Source of the DNA: an uncultured Alphaproteobacteria bacterium | GTDB taxonomy: Bacteria; Pseudomonadota; Alphaproteobacteria; SP197 | DNA: 64,000 bases | Assembly: GCA_943787175.1 (NCBI GenBank) | Contig: CALSLK010000028.1 | Coordinates: 1-64,000, forward strand | Direction of reading: 5' to 3' | Part shown: positions 50,232 to 56,105 of the stretch, piece after piece | Position numbering within the stretch: the first letter of the stretch is position 1 | Layout of the letters: every line of letters starts with the position of its first letter | The notes under the pieces: model-generated | What the model was told of the DNA's origin: nothing | Databases searched by the model: none | The model's input: the letters and a program-made list of their open reading frames with translations, nothing else | Position numbers and translations under genes: made by a program

Positions 50232-50417
50232 CTCTCTCAGGGCGCTGTCAGCAGCAACCGCAACATGCACCAGCCCGTCATCAATCTGCGTGGCGAAGTC
50301 GGCCACCATCGGCGCGGGCTCGCGCCCGATGCGTTCCACATACTTGGCATAGGCATCGCGTGCGCAGGATTCTATGGCGGCAAAGTCGTTCGGTGTCGCA
50401 AGCCTGATGGTGATCAT
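50232..50417 (-). pseudogene. GNAT acetyltransferase N-terminal remnant, cut by a palindromic repeat
   Basis: The minus strand encodes MITIRLATPNDFAAIESCAR and then AYAKYVERIGREPAPMVADF, the standard opening of a small GNAT acetyltransferase, up to about residue 60 (DDGLVHVAVAADSA). The frame then runs into the 110-bp palindromic element and loses similarity; the acetyl-CoA-binding motif and the C-terminal half are missing. The track's 139-aa ORF is therefore a remnant plus repeat. The gene was probably broken by repeat insertion or by a linked deletion. Confidence 0.65.
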
Positions 50418-50445
50418 CAATCGACCTGTTTCCTCTTGGTGGCCT

Positions 50446-51039
50446 TTACTTCAGGCGATCTCTCAGATCGTCCAGGATCGCCTTGGATTGCCTGCAGTTT
50501 ATCAGGCCGTTTCGGCAGACAAAATACAGAGCCTCCTGTTCGCCAGAGGATGCGCAATGACCAATGGTAATCGCGCTCAACCTGCCAAATGGGCCGTTAC
50601 CAACCCGAACCATGCAGTCGAGCGTGTTATCAAGAAGCAACTCCAGATCATCCGTGCTGCGGGTTTCCCTGACATAGCTGTCGAGTGCCGTTGAATGGCG
50701 CGGCCACTTCAGGGGCAGAAGGCTGGCCGCCCTGGGGCACAGGCCCAGGGTGAATTTCCTGGCATTCAGATCAGGTGCGATGGCTTCGGTCGCATCGGTC
50801 AGATCTTCAAGGGTTCTCGAGATGTTGGGAAAATAGGTTTCGCCTTCTCTGGTCAACAAAAGGCCGTGTGGCAATCGGCGGAACAGCGCGATACCCAAAG
50901 ATGTTTCCAGCTTCTTGACCTGCTGGCTCACCGCACCAGGCGTAACCCCAAGCTCACTTGCAGCGGTCGTGAAACTCAAGTGCCGCGCGGCGGCCTCAAA
51001 CGCGCGTAATCCATTAAGTGCCGGGATTCTGTAGGTCAT
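50446..51039 (-). CDS. Shortened LysR family regulator (effector domain internally deleted)
   Basis: The N-terminal half is a normal GcvA-like HTH and linker (NGLRAFEAAARHLSFTTAAS, VTPGAVSQQVKKLETSLGIALFRR). The effector domain begins (KFTLGLCPRAASLLPLKWPR), but the protein is only 197 residues against about 300. The end (EALYFVCRNGLINCRQSKAI) looks like a true LysR C-terminus, so roughly 100 residues of the middle appear deleted. It might still bind DNA but not sense a ligand normally. It is divergent from an ATC-hydrolase-like gene, its likely target. Confidence 0.7.
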   Translation of the reverse strand: MTYRIPALNGLRAFEAAARHLSFTTAASELGVTPGAVSQQVKKLETSLGIALFRRLPHGLLLTREGETYFPNISRTLEDLTDATEAIAPDLNARKFTLGLCPRAASLLPLKWPRHSTALDSYVRETRSTDDLELLLDNTLDCMVRVGNGPFGRLSAITIGHCASSGEQEALYFVCRNGLINCRQSKAILDDLRDRLK

Positions 51040-51194
51040 CTGTCACCTTGTCTTCGGTGTCGTGATTAGCATGGTTGGCGAATGCGCCAGCACCAGCTTT
51101 TCTAGGCCTCGACGAGAGCTTTTCTGGTTTGCGCAATGGCCCACCGTTCTCCCACTCTCTGGGCCTTGGACCAGTGTAAAACGGAGTGAACACC

Positions 51195-51680
51195 ATGCCT
51201 TGCAAACAATCCAACGCCGAAGTTTACGACGCCATCAAGGAGCGCGGCAGGTTGTTCCTCGTCGTGTTTCGGGAACTCTCGGAGCGGTATGGCAAGGACG
51301 AAGCTGTCAGCGTGATGCGCAGTGCAAGCTATGCCTTCGGCAAAACCATCGGCGAAGCGCTGGCATGTTTCGCTCCTCGCGACTTTGCCGGCATGGCCGA
51401 GGCATTCGCGAAATCGCCAGATGACGGAGCGACCTTTTCTCCAGACATCAGACAGCTCGATGATACCTGCCTTGAAGTTCAGATGATGACCTGCCCGATC
51501 AAGGATTCATGGGTGGAAGCTGGATGCAGCGACGAAGAAATCTGCACCTTGCTGCATTGCGCATCCGCCCTTGATGAAGCCACTCTCGACGCTGCGGGGT
51601 TCGACTACACACTTGAATTGTGGTCACCGGGCAAGAAGGGCTGCTGCCTTACGCGGTTAACAGAGAAATCTCGGCTCTAA
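51195..51680 (+). CDS. ATC hydrolase-like protein (L-2-amino-thiazoline-4-carboxylate hydrolase family)
   Basis: A protein of 161 residues resembling the ATC_hydrolase family: MTCPIKDSWVEAGCSDEEIC, LLHCASALDEATLDAAGFDY and a C-terminal GCCLTRL. The conserved CP(I/L)K.AW.E.G and late cysteines match. In Pseudomonas the family name enzyme opens ATC to N-carbamoyl-cysteine on the way to cysteine; most homologues are uncharacterised. The ATG at 51195 lies 8 nt after CGGAG and is preferred over the GTG at 51186. It faces a shortened LysR gene across about 155 bp. Confidence 0.65.
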   Translation: MPCKQSNAEVYDAIKERGRLFLVVFRELSERYGKDEAVSVMRSASYAFGKTIGEALACFAPRDFAGMAEAFAKSPDDGATFSPDIRQLDDTCLEVQMMTCPIKDSWVEAGCSDEEICTLLHCASALDEATLDAAGFDYTLELWSPGKKGCCLTRLTEKSRL

Positions 51681-51729
51681 GCTGGTGTATGGCCGGCCAC
51701 TGAGCAGGTTCGATCGCTGGAAGCGGCTG

Positions 51730-52968
51730 CTACTCTGCCGCCGCCACCATCATCGAGGCTGGCGGCTTCTGGCGGATCAGGAAGACCATCAGGCCGGCCA
51801 GCACGGCAAGCGCCATGGACGAGAGCCATACCCAGTAATAGGCGCTGTAGAGATCAAACAGGTAACCGCCCAGAAAGGCGCCGATCGCGGCACCAATGGC
51901 ATGACCGGCCGAGATCAGGCCCATGGACAATCCCATGACGTGAAGGCCCAGATGGCTTTTCACCAGGCTTGCGGTGACCGGCACGGTCGAGAAATCGACG
52001 GTGCCAAAGATCACGGCAAACAGGACCAGCGTGCTGTAATCAGCCCCGATATTGAGCAGCAGAATGAACGACAGTCCCCGGATCAGATAGATCATGCCCA
52101 GCAGCAGCGGTCGGTTCATGCGATCGGTCAGCCAGCCCACCAGGATCATGCCGCCCAGATTGGCGACCGACAGCACGCCAAAGGCTGCGGCGCTGGGCAC
52201 GGGGCCGAAGCCGCAGAACGAAGCAAAGGGCAGAAAATGGGTCTCGATCACGCCCGATGTCGTGTAGCCGCAGATGAAAAAACTCCAGAACAACAGATGG
52301 AACGTGGGCGACTTCAGGATGTGAATGAAGTCACGGCGCAGGGTTTTCTCACCTGCAGCCGAAGCATCTGTTGCATCGGCTGGTTTTCCCGGCATGTGGC
52401 GCCACAGGAACGGCACCAGCAGGAAACACAGCAGGCCCGTTGCCGCGAAACACCAGCGCCAGTCGGCATAGACCGCAATGGCAGCGATGATCGGCAGAAT
52501 GAGAAACTGACCCGCCGTCGCGCCCGATGTCGCAATGCCGGTCGCCAAGCCGACTCGCTCATCCGTCGCCTGGGCAATCGATGTGCTCACCACGCTCATC
52601 GCAGCCAGCCCCTGGCCCAGGGCAAAAATCCCGGCAAAGGCAAGAATGAAGAGAACCGCGCCCTGGCTCAGGGCGACCGCGAAACACCCCAGCCCCAGAA
52701 CGGTAACGCCGGTCACCAGCACCAGCCGCGCACCATGTCGGTCGACAAAACGTCCGGCAAAAGGTGCAAGTGCAGCCATCATGACCAGCGAGGCTGCTGC
52801 AATGCTCGACAGGAAGGTCCGCGTCCAGCCCATCTCGGCTTCCAGGTCCGGCATCACCAGACTCAGGGTGGCCCGCCCGGAAAAGCCGACGGCTAGCACC
52901 AGGAAACCCAGGATAATGACCAGCCGCAGTGAGGGGCCAGATTTTGTGGCAGGCGATGGCATCGGCAT
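51730..52968 (-). CDS. Major facilitator superfamily transporter
   Basis: A 12-helix MFS carrier of 412 residues. It has the motif between TM2 and TM3 (APFAGRFVDRHGARLVLV), a central loop (PGKPADATDASAAGEKTLRR), and the matching half-repeat GWLTDRMNRPLLLGMIYLIR. It resembles the monocarboxylate/oxalate-formate type by eye, but the substrate is unknown. It is divergent from a GlxA-type regulator across 55 bp, which probably controls it. Confidence 0.85.
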   Translation of the reverse strand: MPMPSPATKSGPSLRLVIILGFLVLAVGFSGRATLSLVMPDLEAEMGWTRTFLSSIAAASLVMMAALAPFAGRFVDRHGARLVLVTGVTVLGLGCFAVALSQGAVLFILAFAGIFALGQGLAAMSVVSTSIAQATDERVGLATGIATSGATAGQFLILPIIAAIAVYADWRWCFAATGLLCFLLVPFLWRHMPGKPADATDASAAGEKTLRRDFIHILKSPTFHLLFWSFFICGYTTSGVIETHFLPFASFCGFGPVPSAAAFGVLSVANLGGMILVGWLTDRMNRPLLLGMIYLIRGLSFILLLNIGADYSTLVLFAVIFGTVDFSTVPVTASLVKSHLGLHVMGLSMGLISAGHAIGAAIGAFLGGYLFDLYSAYYWVWLSSMALAVLAGLMVFLIRQKPPASMMVAAAE

Positions 52969-53023: not shown

Positions 53024-54031
53024 ATGACCTCATTTCCTGCCAAACGGGATTCGCCGCCTCGCCGCATTGTTATCGTTGTTTATCACGGTGTCACCCTGTT
53101 GGACGCTACAGGCCCTGCCGAGGTGTTTGGCACTGCGTCGAACGCCGATGCCGGTGGTCCCGCGGCCTATCAGGTCGTGTTGGCCTCAAGGGATGGCGGC
53201 ATCGTCACCACGGATGGTGGCGTTGATCTGGGCACCTGTTCGCTAACCCAAGCCTCCGCCGAACCCATCGATACTCTGCTGGTCGCAGGCGGCAACGGCG
53301 TCTTCGACGTCATGGGCGACAGTACGCTGGTAAACTGGATCGCACGCGAAGCGCAACGTGCCCGCCGTTGCGGTTCGACCTGCATGGGCGCGTTCCTGCT
53401 TGCCGCTGCCGACCTGCTCGATGGGCGCCGCGTCGTCACGCACTGGCGCTGGTGTGACCGTCTACGGTCGGAGTTCCCCGACCTTGCCGTCGAAGACGAT
53501 CCCATCTTCATTCAAGACGGTTCGCTCTGGTCCTCAGCCGGTGTTTCCGCAGGCATCGACATGGCGCTGGCCATGGTCGAGGAGGATGAGGGTCATGCCC
53601 TGGCGCTGGAAGTCGCGCGCCGCCTGGTGGTCTACCTCAAACGCCCTGGCGGTCAGTCACAGTTCAGCGAAACTCTCAAAGCCCAGGGCAGTGACACCAA
53701 CGGCGGCAGCGGCGCACTTGATCAACTCCATGTCTGGATGCGCGACAATCTTTCTGAGGATCTGCGCGTGGAACGTCTTGCAAAGGTCGCGGGCATGAGC
53801 CCGCGCAACTTCGCGCGCGTCTTCACCAGCCGTTTTGACATGACGCCGGCCAAGGCGGTCGAAGCCATGCGCATCGAAGTCTCCAAACAACAGCTCGTCG
53901 CCCAAAAAACCGCCATTGCCCAGATCGCGCGCCAATGCGGCTTCCAGGACGACGAACGCATGCGCCGCGCCTTCCTGCGCCACACCGGCATCGCACCGAT
54001 GGATTACCGCAGGAGGTTTGGTGTTCAGTAA
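53024..54031 (+). CDS. GlxA family transcriptional regulator (DJ-1/PfpI plus AraC HTH)
   Basis: About 335 residues. An N-terminal DJ-1/PfpI-like domain (RRIVIVVYHGVTLLDATGPA; LLVAGGNGVFDVM; CGSTCMGAFLLAAADLLDGR with the nucleophile-elbow Cys) is followed by a C-terminal AraC-type double HTH (LAKVAGMSPRNFARVFTSRF; IAQIARQCGFQDDERMRRAF, then LRHTGIAPMDYRRRFG). GlxA-type regulators control amine and arginine catabolism in several proteobacteria. Its likely target is the divergent MFS gene. The AT-rich orphan follows 64 nt downstream. Confidence 0.9.
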   Translation: MTSFPAKRDSPPRRIVIVVYHGVTLLDATGPAEVFGTASNADAGGPAAYQVVLASRDGGIVTTDGGVDLGTCSLTQASAEPIDTLLVAGGNGVFDVMGDSTLVNWIAREAQRARRCGSTCMGAFLLAAADLLDGRRVVTHWRWCDRLRSEFPDLAVEDDPIFIQDGSLWSSAGVSAGIDMALAMVEEDEGHALALEVARRLVVYLKRPGGQSQFSETLKAQGSDTNGGSGALDQLHVWMRDNLSEDLRVERLAKVAGMSPRNFARVFTSRFDMTPAKAVEAMRIEVSKQQLVAQKTAIAQIARQCGFQDDERMRRAFLRHTGIAPMDYRRRFGVQ

Positions 54032-54095
54032 TCCGTAATTTGGTCAAAATTTGGAGTCAGTCTGTCCTTCTTGGCAGATCAAACATGATGGTTAG

Positions 54096-54563
54096 ATGAA
54101 AATTGAGGGTAGAAATATTTTATTGATTCTTTCAATATTGCTTTTTTCCATCATAATTCTGGGAAATGCATCTGGTGTGTGTTGGGGTTCATTTAGTTAT
54201 AGAGATAATGATAGTGTATTGAGGAATTTTGTTGAGAGAGATATGCTAGGTCCGGAATTTGGTGAAATTCTAGTTTGGAGTGAAGGGGAAATAGTTGAAG
54301 TAAAATACAAAAGAAATAACTTTTCATCATATAATGAATTGTTAAACAAATTTCCAGATTGTTGTAATGTTTCTTTGGTGCAAGGTTTTGAAGGTGTTAC
54401 AGGTTTTATTCTTTTTCTGGGTTTTGGAGTTTCTATGTATAAGTTAACGATCACCTACATGGGAACGCAAGTGACTGGCGAGGTTTTTGAGGGTGCCTTG
54501 AAAGGTTACTGGGAGAGGCCAACGGAGATTCAGTTTCGTGTATATGAGAGCAAGTGTTTATAG
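54096..54563 (+). CDS. AT-rich orphan, membrane-anchored or secreted protein of unknown function
   Basis: About 155 residues with an N-terminal hydrophobic segment ILLILSILLFSIIILG that is a signal anchor or signal peptide. The rest is a mixed soluble domain with several Cys (GVCWGSF, FPDCCNVS, YESKC) and a second hydrophobic stretch GVTGFILFLGFGVSMYKLTI. Base composition is about one third G+C by eye, against about 60% in all neighbours, with A/T-ending codons (AAT, TTT, ATA, AGA) almost absent elsewhere. I recognise no family. Foreign origin is very likely; its flanks show no integrase or clear att repeat. Confidence 0.65.
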   Translation: MKIEGRNILLILSILLFSIIILGNASGVCWGSFSYRDNDSVLRNFVERDMLGPEFGEILVWSEGEIVEVKYKRNNFSSYNELLNKFPDCCNVSLVQGFEGVTGFILFLGFGVSMYKLTITYMGTQVTGEVFEGALKGYWERPTEIQFRVYESKCL

Positions 54564-54932
54564 AAGCGCAATGCGGTAGACGTTGTCTTCGGATGATTCT
54601 CACATCGTCCTGAACTCGCTTCACCGATTTGTCGAACGCATCCCAGCGCTGCATCGTCAATGGAGTGTTTTGGTGACAGTTTACATTTTACCTGCTGGTC
54701 CGTAACGCCCCAGAAAACCCTTGCTATAACCGCCGATCCGGAGAACATCGTGGGGTCATCTGACAGCCCGAAACGTCCGGGCCGATGACCTCTCTCAAAT
54801 CCGGCTTGCGTGGCGTCCACGCGGCCCCGGTAACCCACGTTTTCTACTTTGCATGGGGTTGAACCGGAAAAAACGCGGAAGCCCCCCTGTCATGTTCAGC
54901 AACGGTACGCATTCGGCAGGGCCTGACGTCTC
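54564..54932. other. Intergenic region without a supported gene
   Basis: About 370 bp between the AT-rich orphan and an MFS gene. Composition climbs back to the local high-G+C level from about 54700. The ORFs listed here have no recognisable sequence or ribosome-binding site. GGTGACAGTTTACATTTTACC (54671 on) is AT-rich and could mark the edge of the acquired segment, but I find no matching copy on the other side. Confidence 0.4.
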
Positions 54933-56105
54933 ATGACATCGGCGACACCTGCGCCCACCAGACGTCTGGCTTCGCTCTTTGCCGTCATCGGCAGCATGAC
55001 CGGCATGGCGATGTTCTATGGCTACACCGGCCCGTTGCTGTCCATCGTGCTGGAAGACAACGGGGTCAGCGGCGCACTCATCGGGTTCAACGGTGCCGTC
55101 CAGATGGCGGGCGTCTTCATCATCCTGCCGTTCCTGCCCTTCCTCATCCGCAAGCTGGGTCCCGCGCGTCTGATGATGATCGGAGCCAGCGTGGCGCTGC
55201 TCACCATCCTGCTCATGGCGACCTTCGTCGATGTCTGGCTCTGGTTTCCCCTGCGCTTCATGATGGGCGCGGCCCAGTCGATGATGTGGACCACGGGCGA
55301 GACCTGGATCAACCATTCCAGCGATGACCGCAGCCGTGGGCGCACCATCGGTTATTTCATGAGTGCGGTGGCAGCCGGTTTCGCGACCGGCCCGTTCCTG
55401 CAGGCCGAGTTTGGTTCTGTTGGCTGGCTGCCCTTCCTGGTCGGTGCCTCCATGATCGGGCTCATCATCCTGCCGCTGTTTGCCGGCCTGCGTGATCGTA
55501 TCGAGACCGAAGGCCGCCCGTCGGTGCGCCTGCCGCAATATGTGCGTCTGGCGCCGGTGCCGATGCTCTCCAACCTGTTCTTTGCCATGATCGCCAGTTC
55601 CATGATGGCGCTGCTTGCGGTCTATGGCCTGCGTCTGGAGATGGAGGCGGGTTCTGCCTCGCGCATGGTCGGCTGGATGGGCTGGGGCGGCGTATTCATG
55701 CCGCTGTTGATCGGCTATCTCGCCGACAAGATGGACCGCACCCTGTTGCTCGCCTGTTTTGTCGGCTTCGGCGCTGTCTGTGCCGCGATCCTGCCCTGGG
55801 TCGCCGATATGGGCGCGTGGATGGCGCCGATTTACCTGATGATTTTCGGCGGCTTGCGCGGTGGCCATTACGGCCTGGCAGTCATGCTCATTGGTGAGCG
55901 CTTCCGGGGGGCTGATCTTCCCTCGGCCACGGTGGTCTTTGGTTTCATGTTCGGCATCGGCTCAGTCATGGGCCCGGCGATCTCGGGCCTGGCCATCGAT
56001 ATCTGGGACCCGCACGGCCTGCCGCTGGCCATTGCGGTCTTCTATCTCGTCTTCCTGCCGCTTCCGCTCATCGCGTGGTGGCGCCGCCGTCAAGCCAGCC
56101 TGTAA
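54933..56105 (+). CDS. MFS transporter, YcaD/TCR type
   Basis: A 12-helix MFS protein of 390 residues. The first half has AMFYGYTGPLLSIVLEDNGV and FIILPFLPFLIRKLGPARLM; the TM5 region GETWINHSSDDRSRGRTIGY (ETWIN) is a hallmark of YcaD-like carriers. The second half mirrors it (LIGYLADKMDRTLLLACFVG; RGGHYGLAVMLIGERFRGAD). Substrate is unknown. It converges on an exported-protein gene, with stops overlapping by 16 bp. Confidence 0.83.
   Translation: MTSATPAPTRRLASLFAVIGSMTGMAMFYGYTGPLLSIVLEDNGVSGALIGFNGAVQMAGVFIILPFLPFLIRKLGPARLMMIGASVALLTILLMATFVDVWLWFPLRFMMGAAQSMMWTTGETWINHSSDDRSRGRTIGYFMSAVAAGFATGPFLQAEFGSVGWLPFLVGASMIGLIILPLFAGLRDRIETEGRPSVRLPQYVRLAPVPMLSNLFFAMIASSMMALLAVYGLRLEMEAGSASRMVGWMGWGGVFMPLLIGYLADKMDRTLLLACFVGFGAVCAAILPWVADMGAWMAPIYLMIFGGLRGGHYGLAVMLIGERFRGADLPSATVVFGFMFGIGSVMGPAISGLAIDIWDPHGLPLAIAVFYLVFLPLPLIAWWRRRQASL

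What the first reader, a model, noticed from the sequence alone, without database searches (positions are those of the whole stretch)
54050..54700. Isolated AT-rich island carrying one orphan membrane-anchored protein
The 155-aa ORF and about 50 bp on each side drop to roughly one third G+C, with codons (AGA, ATA, TTA, AAT) hardly used by neighbours. It lies after a GlxA regulator in an accessory zone that also holds a broken GNAT gene and a shortened LysR. No integrase, transposase or att repeat is visible. Single AT-rich cargo genes of this kind often encode effectors, immunity or defence proteins.
Basis: partly seen in the sequence, partly recalled or inferred. Interest (0 to 1): 0.55.

Follow-up and report, generated by a model that had tools for sequence, protein, structure and literature searches.

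The report
Acquired orphan RTX-locus immunity-like gene
A single foreign AT-rich gene has been slipped between two native genes of this alphaproteobacterium; its protein is a distant relative of small membrane-anchored proteins that other bacteria often encode beside secreted RTX toxin-like proteins, so it is probably a stray self-protection (immunity) gene, though that function is untested.

Summary
ORF 54096-54563 (+) is 35% G+C in a 61% G+C window, has the lowest codon adaptation of the 57 ORFs compared, and lies in a ~0.67 kb segment (54025-54700). That segment is missing, to within a few bases, from the same GlxA-MFS junction in the sister genome, and nothing like it lies there in more distant relatives. 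No transposase, integrase, tRNA or attC-like structure was found; a 7-bp repeat (TCCGTAA) at the edges could be chance.

The protein has no database family and no close homologue. It is, however, a remote member of an uncatalogued family that I assembled here: an N-terminal membrane anchor and four fixed cysteines (SGxC, PxCC, C-terminal C). The window protein has exactly those four and no others. A profile built without it scores it above all 4522 comparison ORFs other than family members.

Pasteurellaceae relatives come in 1-3 copies. In three or four of nine loci they sit beside a type I secretion operon and/or an RTX protein; the Nostoc plasmid relative also precedes an RTX protein. The other copies stand alone or in arrays. 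This resembles immunity genes with orphan copies. I read the window gene as a horizontally acquired orphan immunity-like protein. Homology is well supported; function is inferred.

The parts
54025..54700 (.). Inserted segment; in the sister genome only 5 bp (L023 10835-10839) lie between the flanks
   Evidence: blastn of the window against the sister locus: left flank aligns to 54024, right flank from 54701; sequences read
54096..54563 (+). 155-aa ORF, membrane-anchored four-cysteine protein
   Evidence: family profile built without it scores it 17.9 bits, E 5.6e-4 over 4522 ORFs
54117..54173 (+). N-terminal hydrophobic anchor (residues 8-26), positive charges before it, so the rest is predicted periplasmic
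   Evidence: Kyte-Doolittle 19-residue maximum 2.53 at residue 8; helix 5-25 is the best-scoring part of the AF2 model (pLDDT 78-79)
54180..54182 (+). Cys29 of the SGxC motif
   Evidence: invariant column in alignment A4
54360..54365 (+). Cys89-Cys90 of the FPDCC motif, after SSYNEL
   Evidence: invariant columns in alignment A4
54555..54557 (+). C-terminal Cys154
   Evidence: invariant column in alignment A4
54564..54698 (.). Non-coding tail of the insert, 50% G+C, no significant fold, no second copy in the genome
54032..54038 (+). TCCGTAA, left copy of a 7-bp repeat at the insert edge (target duplication, microhomology or chance)
   Evidence: sequence; a shared 7-mer arises in 7.8% of random window pairs of this size
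54699..54705 (+). TCCGTAA, right copy; the sister genome has one TGCGTAA at this place
   Evidence: sequence
53024..54031 (+). Native left neighbour: GlxA-type regulator, stop codon preserved by the insertion
   Evidence: conserved in G013, G004 and G003 next to the same MFS gene
54933..56105 (+). Native right neighbour: MFS transporter
   Evidence: 94% identical protein in the sister genome

Best explanation
A short piece of AT-rich DNA carrying one gene was inserted by horizontal transfer between GlxA and an MFS gene, after this lineage split from its sister species. The gene encodes a small protein held in the inner membrane by one N-terminal helix, with a periplasmic domain probably stabilised by disulfides among four cysteines. 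It is a remote member of a family whose genes often sit beside type I secretion and RTX genes. Most likely it is an orphan immunity protein: from the inner membrane it binds or blocks an RTX-type antibacterial protein made by other cells, without the host carrying the attacking gene beside it. Shown here: the insertion, the composition, the family membership and the RTX linkage of relatives. Inferred: topology, disulfides, toxin binding and immunity.
For: (1) Empty site in the sister genome, and no insert in the same gap of G004 and G003 or beside a GlxA remnant in G007. (2) Family: a profile of 16 members without the window protein gives it 17.9 bits, E 5.6e-4 among 4522 ORFs, next non-member 10.5 bits; 0 of 20000 shuffles reach its score; hhalign E 1e-6, probability 91%; BLASTP with the Nostoc member 9e-6 as a single comparison. 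The only four cysteines (29, 89, 90, 154) fall on the four invariant family cysteines. (3) Context: in two Pasteurellaceae loci the gene lies between HlyD and an RTX protein, after a C39-peptidase ABC transporter (L084, L086); in L089 just before RTX ORFs; in L087 directly after HlyBD, with an RTX ORF further down; on a Nostoc plasmid just before a 1025-aa RTX/VWA protein. (4) Copies are duplicated in tandem and also occur without RTX genes in sight (L085, L088, L090, L091, L092), as immunity genes do (PMC5361080). (5) Family genes are themselves AT-rich (29-38%), matching the insert. Precedents: CdzI, an inner-membrane immunity protein of a type I secreted contact-dependent bacteriocin (PMC5380434); Smlt3025, immunity to an effector homologous to RTX-protein N-termini (PMC6759196).
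Against: No experiment shows immunity for any family member. With Pasteurellaceae members alone in the profile the window score is weak (11.3 bits, 3 of 20000 shuffles reach it), so the link leans on the single Nostoc member, which was found with a query I composed from memory. Identity is only 15-21%, and residues 95-150 align poorly. Five of nine Pasteurellaceae loci have no RTX gene nearby. The AF2 model is poor (pLDDT 43). No strong ribosome-binding site is visible upstream of the start.
Confidence: 0.45

Rival explanations
1. FrpD-like partner: the protein binds an RTX protein to hold or help it at the cell surface (adhesion or retention) rather than to protect the cell. The window copy would then be a stray accessory gene, possibly without a partner.
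For: RTX/T1SS linkage. FrpD is encoded in the same operon as the RTX protein FrpC and binds its N-terminus at the surface (PMC5472700, PMC5233953).
Against: No sequence match of the family to any solved structure. FrpD is an outer-membrane lipoprotein, whereas this family has a plain membrane anchor and no lipobox. Tandem and stand-alone copies are more typical of immunity genes.
Confidence: 0.2
2. The gene is a non-adaptive passenger: foreign AT-rich DNA captured by illegitimate recombination (for example at the 7-bp TCCGTAA repeat), decaying and without function in this host.
For: No visible strong ribosome-binding site, single genome, extreme codon mismatch, no partner RTX family found in the genome (uninformative control).
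Against: The frame is fully open (p about 1e-5 by composition) and all four family cysteines are kept.
Confidence: 0.25
3. The similarity is convergent; the protein is an unrelated AT-rich orphan, for example phage or plasmid cargo.
For: Low identity; weak score against the Pasteurellaceae-only profile.
Against: Profile rank and E-value, exact cysteine pattern, same length and anchor. No phage, plasmid or viral-contig homologue.
Confidence: 0.1

Closest known systems
Unnamed four-cysteine family beside T1SS/RTX loci (Pasteurellaceae; Nostoc WP_224095486.1, annotated hypothetical protein)
   Same: Length 139-162 aa, N-terminal membrane anchor, SGxC, YxS...E, PxCC, C-terminal Cys, AT-rich gene, patchy distribution
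   Different: The window copy has no RTX or T1SS gene beside it, lacks the Gly after the last Cys, and has a longer, divergent C-terminal half
CdzI of Caulobacter (PMC5380434)
   Same: Small inner-membrane immunity protein linked to a type I secreted contact-dependent killing system, in an alphaproteobacterium
   Different: Cdz toxins are glycine-zipper proteins, not RTX; sequence relationship not tested
FrpD of Neisseria meningitidis and Smlt3025 of Stenotrophomonas (PMC5233953, PMC6759196)
   Same: Membrane-associated partner of RTX-type proteins or their homologues; Smlt3025 is an immunity protein
   Different: Lipoprotein (FrpD); no sequence match of the family profile to the PDB
Orphan immunity gene arrays (V. 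cholerae T6SS, PMC5361080; Bacteroidales rAID, PMC12247911)
   Same: Tandem or isolated immunity genes without the attacking gene, spread horizontally
   Different: Those are T6SS-linked; here one isolated gene and no recombinase

Membership tests
Four-cysteine RTX-linked family (assembled here) | Scores on a profile built without it above unrelated ORFs | tested here: met
   17.9 bits, E 5.6e-4; next non-member 10.5 bits. Weaker (11.3 bits) if Nostoc is left out
Four-cysteine RTX-linked family (assembled here) | Four invariant cysteines: GxC, PxCC, C-terminal C | tested here: met
   Cys 29, 89, 90, 154 in aligned columns, no others
Four-cysteine RTX-linked family (assembled here) | Single N-terminal membrane anchor | tested here: met
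   Hydropathy maximum 2.53 at residues 8-26
Four-cysteine RTX-linked family (assembled here) | Neighbouring RTX/T1SS genes (not a defining feature: seen in some members only) | tested here: not met
   Neighbours are GlxA and MFS; 5 of 9 Pasteurellaceae loci also lack RTX neighbours
Immunity protein | Protects cells against a named toxin | not testable with these tools
   Needs a competition or binding assay
FrpD family | Sequence or fold match to FrpD | tested here: inconclusive
   No PDB sequence match; fold model too poor to compare
Integron gene cassette | attC-like structure downstream of the ORF and an integron integrase | tested here: not met
   Fold z-scores 0.15 and 1.21; no integrase over the cut-off
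Known anti-phage defence protein | Match in PADLOC | tested here: not met

The most novel reading that the evidence does not exclude
A wide, uncatalogued family of inner-membrane, disulfide-bonded immunity proteins guards against type I-secreted RTX antibacterial proteins in Pasteurellaceae, cyanobacteria and alphaproteobacteria, and single orphan copies such as this one spread as acquired protection.
Probability: 0.3. Interest if true: 0.65.

Novelty: new member of a known kind. Interest (0 to 1): 0.42.

Why it matters
Many RTX proteins have no known target. A small membrane-protein family that accompanies them, and that also travels alone, would point to bacteria as the targets of some of them and gives a concrete pair of genes to test. 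It also gives a candidate identity for a class of AT-rich single-gene insertions usually left as 'hypothetical'.

Tried and rejected
Pfam, NCBIfam, PHROGs, PADLOC and PDB with the protein alone: nothing (the Csx19 hit at E 0.035 is noise). Plasmids, phages, viral and genome contigs, 385 class and 399 phylum genomes by sequence: no homologue (weak hits L002 and L050-L052 are chance, for example pilins). Integron cassette: rejected. RNA family: none. tRNA target: none in the window. IS/MITE: no second copy of the tail in the genome. Neisseriaceae origin of the relatives: first assumed from gene content, then rejected, since DNA uptake words of that family are absent and Pasteurellaceae uptake words are strongly enriched. 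RTX-family search of the own genome with PF06594: nothing, but the controls did not ring either, so uninformative. Fold search was not run because the model is too poor. The TCCGTAA repeat as a target duplication: not significant.

Full report
OBSERVATION. The ORF at 54096-54563 (+, 155 aa) is 35.0% G+C with GC3 31%, in a window of 60.7%. Only windows lying on it are this low, it has the lowest codon adaptation of the 57 window ORFs compared, and AGA, TTA, ATA and AAT are strongly over-used. An open frame of this length is unlikely by chance at this composition (about 1e-5).

INSERTION. The closest relative with the locus is a MAG of the same genus (G013, contig CALIUG010000149.1; the MFS protein is 94% identical, DNA 84-88%). 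It aligns to the window up to 54024 and again from 54701, with 5 bp in place of 676 bp. G004 and G003 keep GlxA followed by the MFS gene with unrelated short intergenic DNA; G007 keeps only a GlxA end beside the MFS gene; G009 has a GNAT-like gene instead of GlxA. None has the ORF. The simplest history is one insertion in the window's lineage, just behind the GlxA stop codon. TCCGTAA stands at 54032-54038 and 54699-54705, where the sister has a single TGCGTAA. (An earlier notebook entry gave wrong coordinates for the right copy.) A shared 7-mer in stretches of this size occurs in 7.8% of random pairs, so a target duplication is not shown. No integron integrase over the cut-off, attC-like fold, tRNA or second copy of the tail was found.

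THE PROTEIN. No library or collection gave a homologue. The string SxxExxxxxPxCCxV reminded me of small anchored hypothetical proteins, so I composed a consensus from memory as a probe. That probe is a lead only. It found real proteins: WP_224095486.1 on a Nostoc plasmid and two proteins in family f191 of the same phylum. A profile from these plus the window protein found further copies in 10 of 140 genomes of f191. f191 is Pasteurellaceae by its DNA uptake words (Neisserial words absent). An alignment of 15 shows five invariant columns, G and four cysteines. The window protein's only four cysteines are those four.

TESTS OF HOMOLOGY. A profile from 15 Pasteurellaceae copies plus Nostoc, without the window protein, ranks it directly below the members among 4522 ORFs at 17.9 bits, E 5.6e-4; the next is 10.5 bits, E 0.11. 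A similar profile beats all 20000 shuffles that keep the composition of anchor and domain separately (17.8 against a maximum of 13.2). With Pasteurellaceae alone it is 11.3 bits and 3 shuffles reach it; with the anchor removed from the profile members it is 14.0 bits and 2 shuffles reach it. hhalign gives E 1e-6, probability 91%, over residues 1-94. Homology is therefore well supported for the anchor-to-PxCC half and weak for the rest.

CONTEXT OF RELATIVES. In L084 and L086 one or two copies lie between HlyD and a large RTX protein, behind a C39-peptidase ABC transporter; in L084 two more follow the RTX gene. In L089 the copy is followed by ORFs with RTX repeats. In L087 two copies follow HlyBD among other small anchored proteins, with an RTX ORF further down. 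In Nostoc the gene precedes a 1025-aa RTX/VWA/Ig protein on the same strand. In L085, L088, L090, L091 and L092 copies stand without RTX genes, single or in arrays. Copies are AT-rich (29-38%) and rare: 10 of 140 genomes in f191 and, outside the window's genome, 2 of 399 across the phylum.

MECHANISM. Shown: insertion, foreign composition, family, partial RTX/T1SS linkage, tandem and lone copies. Inferred: N-in topology from charges, disulfides, immunity. The closest working analogies are CdzI (PMC5380434; inner membrane, T1SS) and Smlt3025 (PMC6759196; immunity to an effector homologous to RTX-protein N-termini, fold like FrpD). FrpD itself gives the main rival, an RTX surface partner (PMC5472700, PMC5233953). 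Tandem and orphan copies favour immunity (PMC5361080, PMC12247911), but nothing here tests it.

VERDICT. It is not a pure orphan; it is most likely a stray member of an uncatalogued RTX-linked, immunity-like family.

Noticed in passing
window 50237-51731: A second ~1.5 kb segment (short LysR, an ORF at 51186-51680, GNAT remnant) is absent from the sister genome, which has 28 bp there (L023 8511-8538); G004 holds about 3 kb at the same place, so this is an indel hot spot.
   Followed up: partly
L030 2050-2420: G009 has a GNAT-like gene in place of GlxA between the two MFS genes; it is similar in DNA to the window's broken GNAT (50281-50379).
   Followed up: partly
L087 8868-16285; L088 7135-11257: Arrays of several other families of small anchored proteins (for example MLKFLKKHRCCTIS..., MKLIRDFIKEMEIYNK...) next to the four-cysteine genes; those scanned have no Pfam match and may be further immunity families.
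   Followed up: no
L092 1011-6142: Very AT-rich (27-28%) pair of large ORFs behind a small helix-turn-helix gene, looks like a restriction-modification island near a family member.
   Followed up: no
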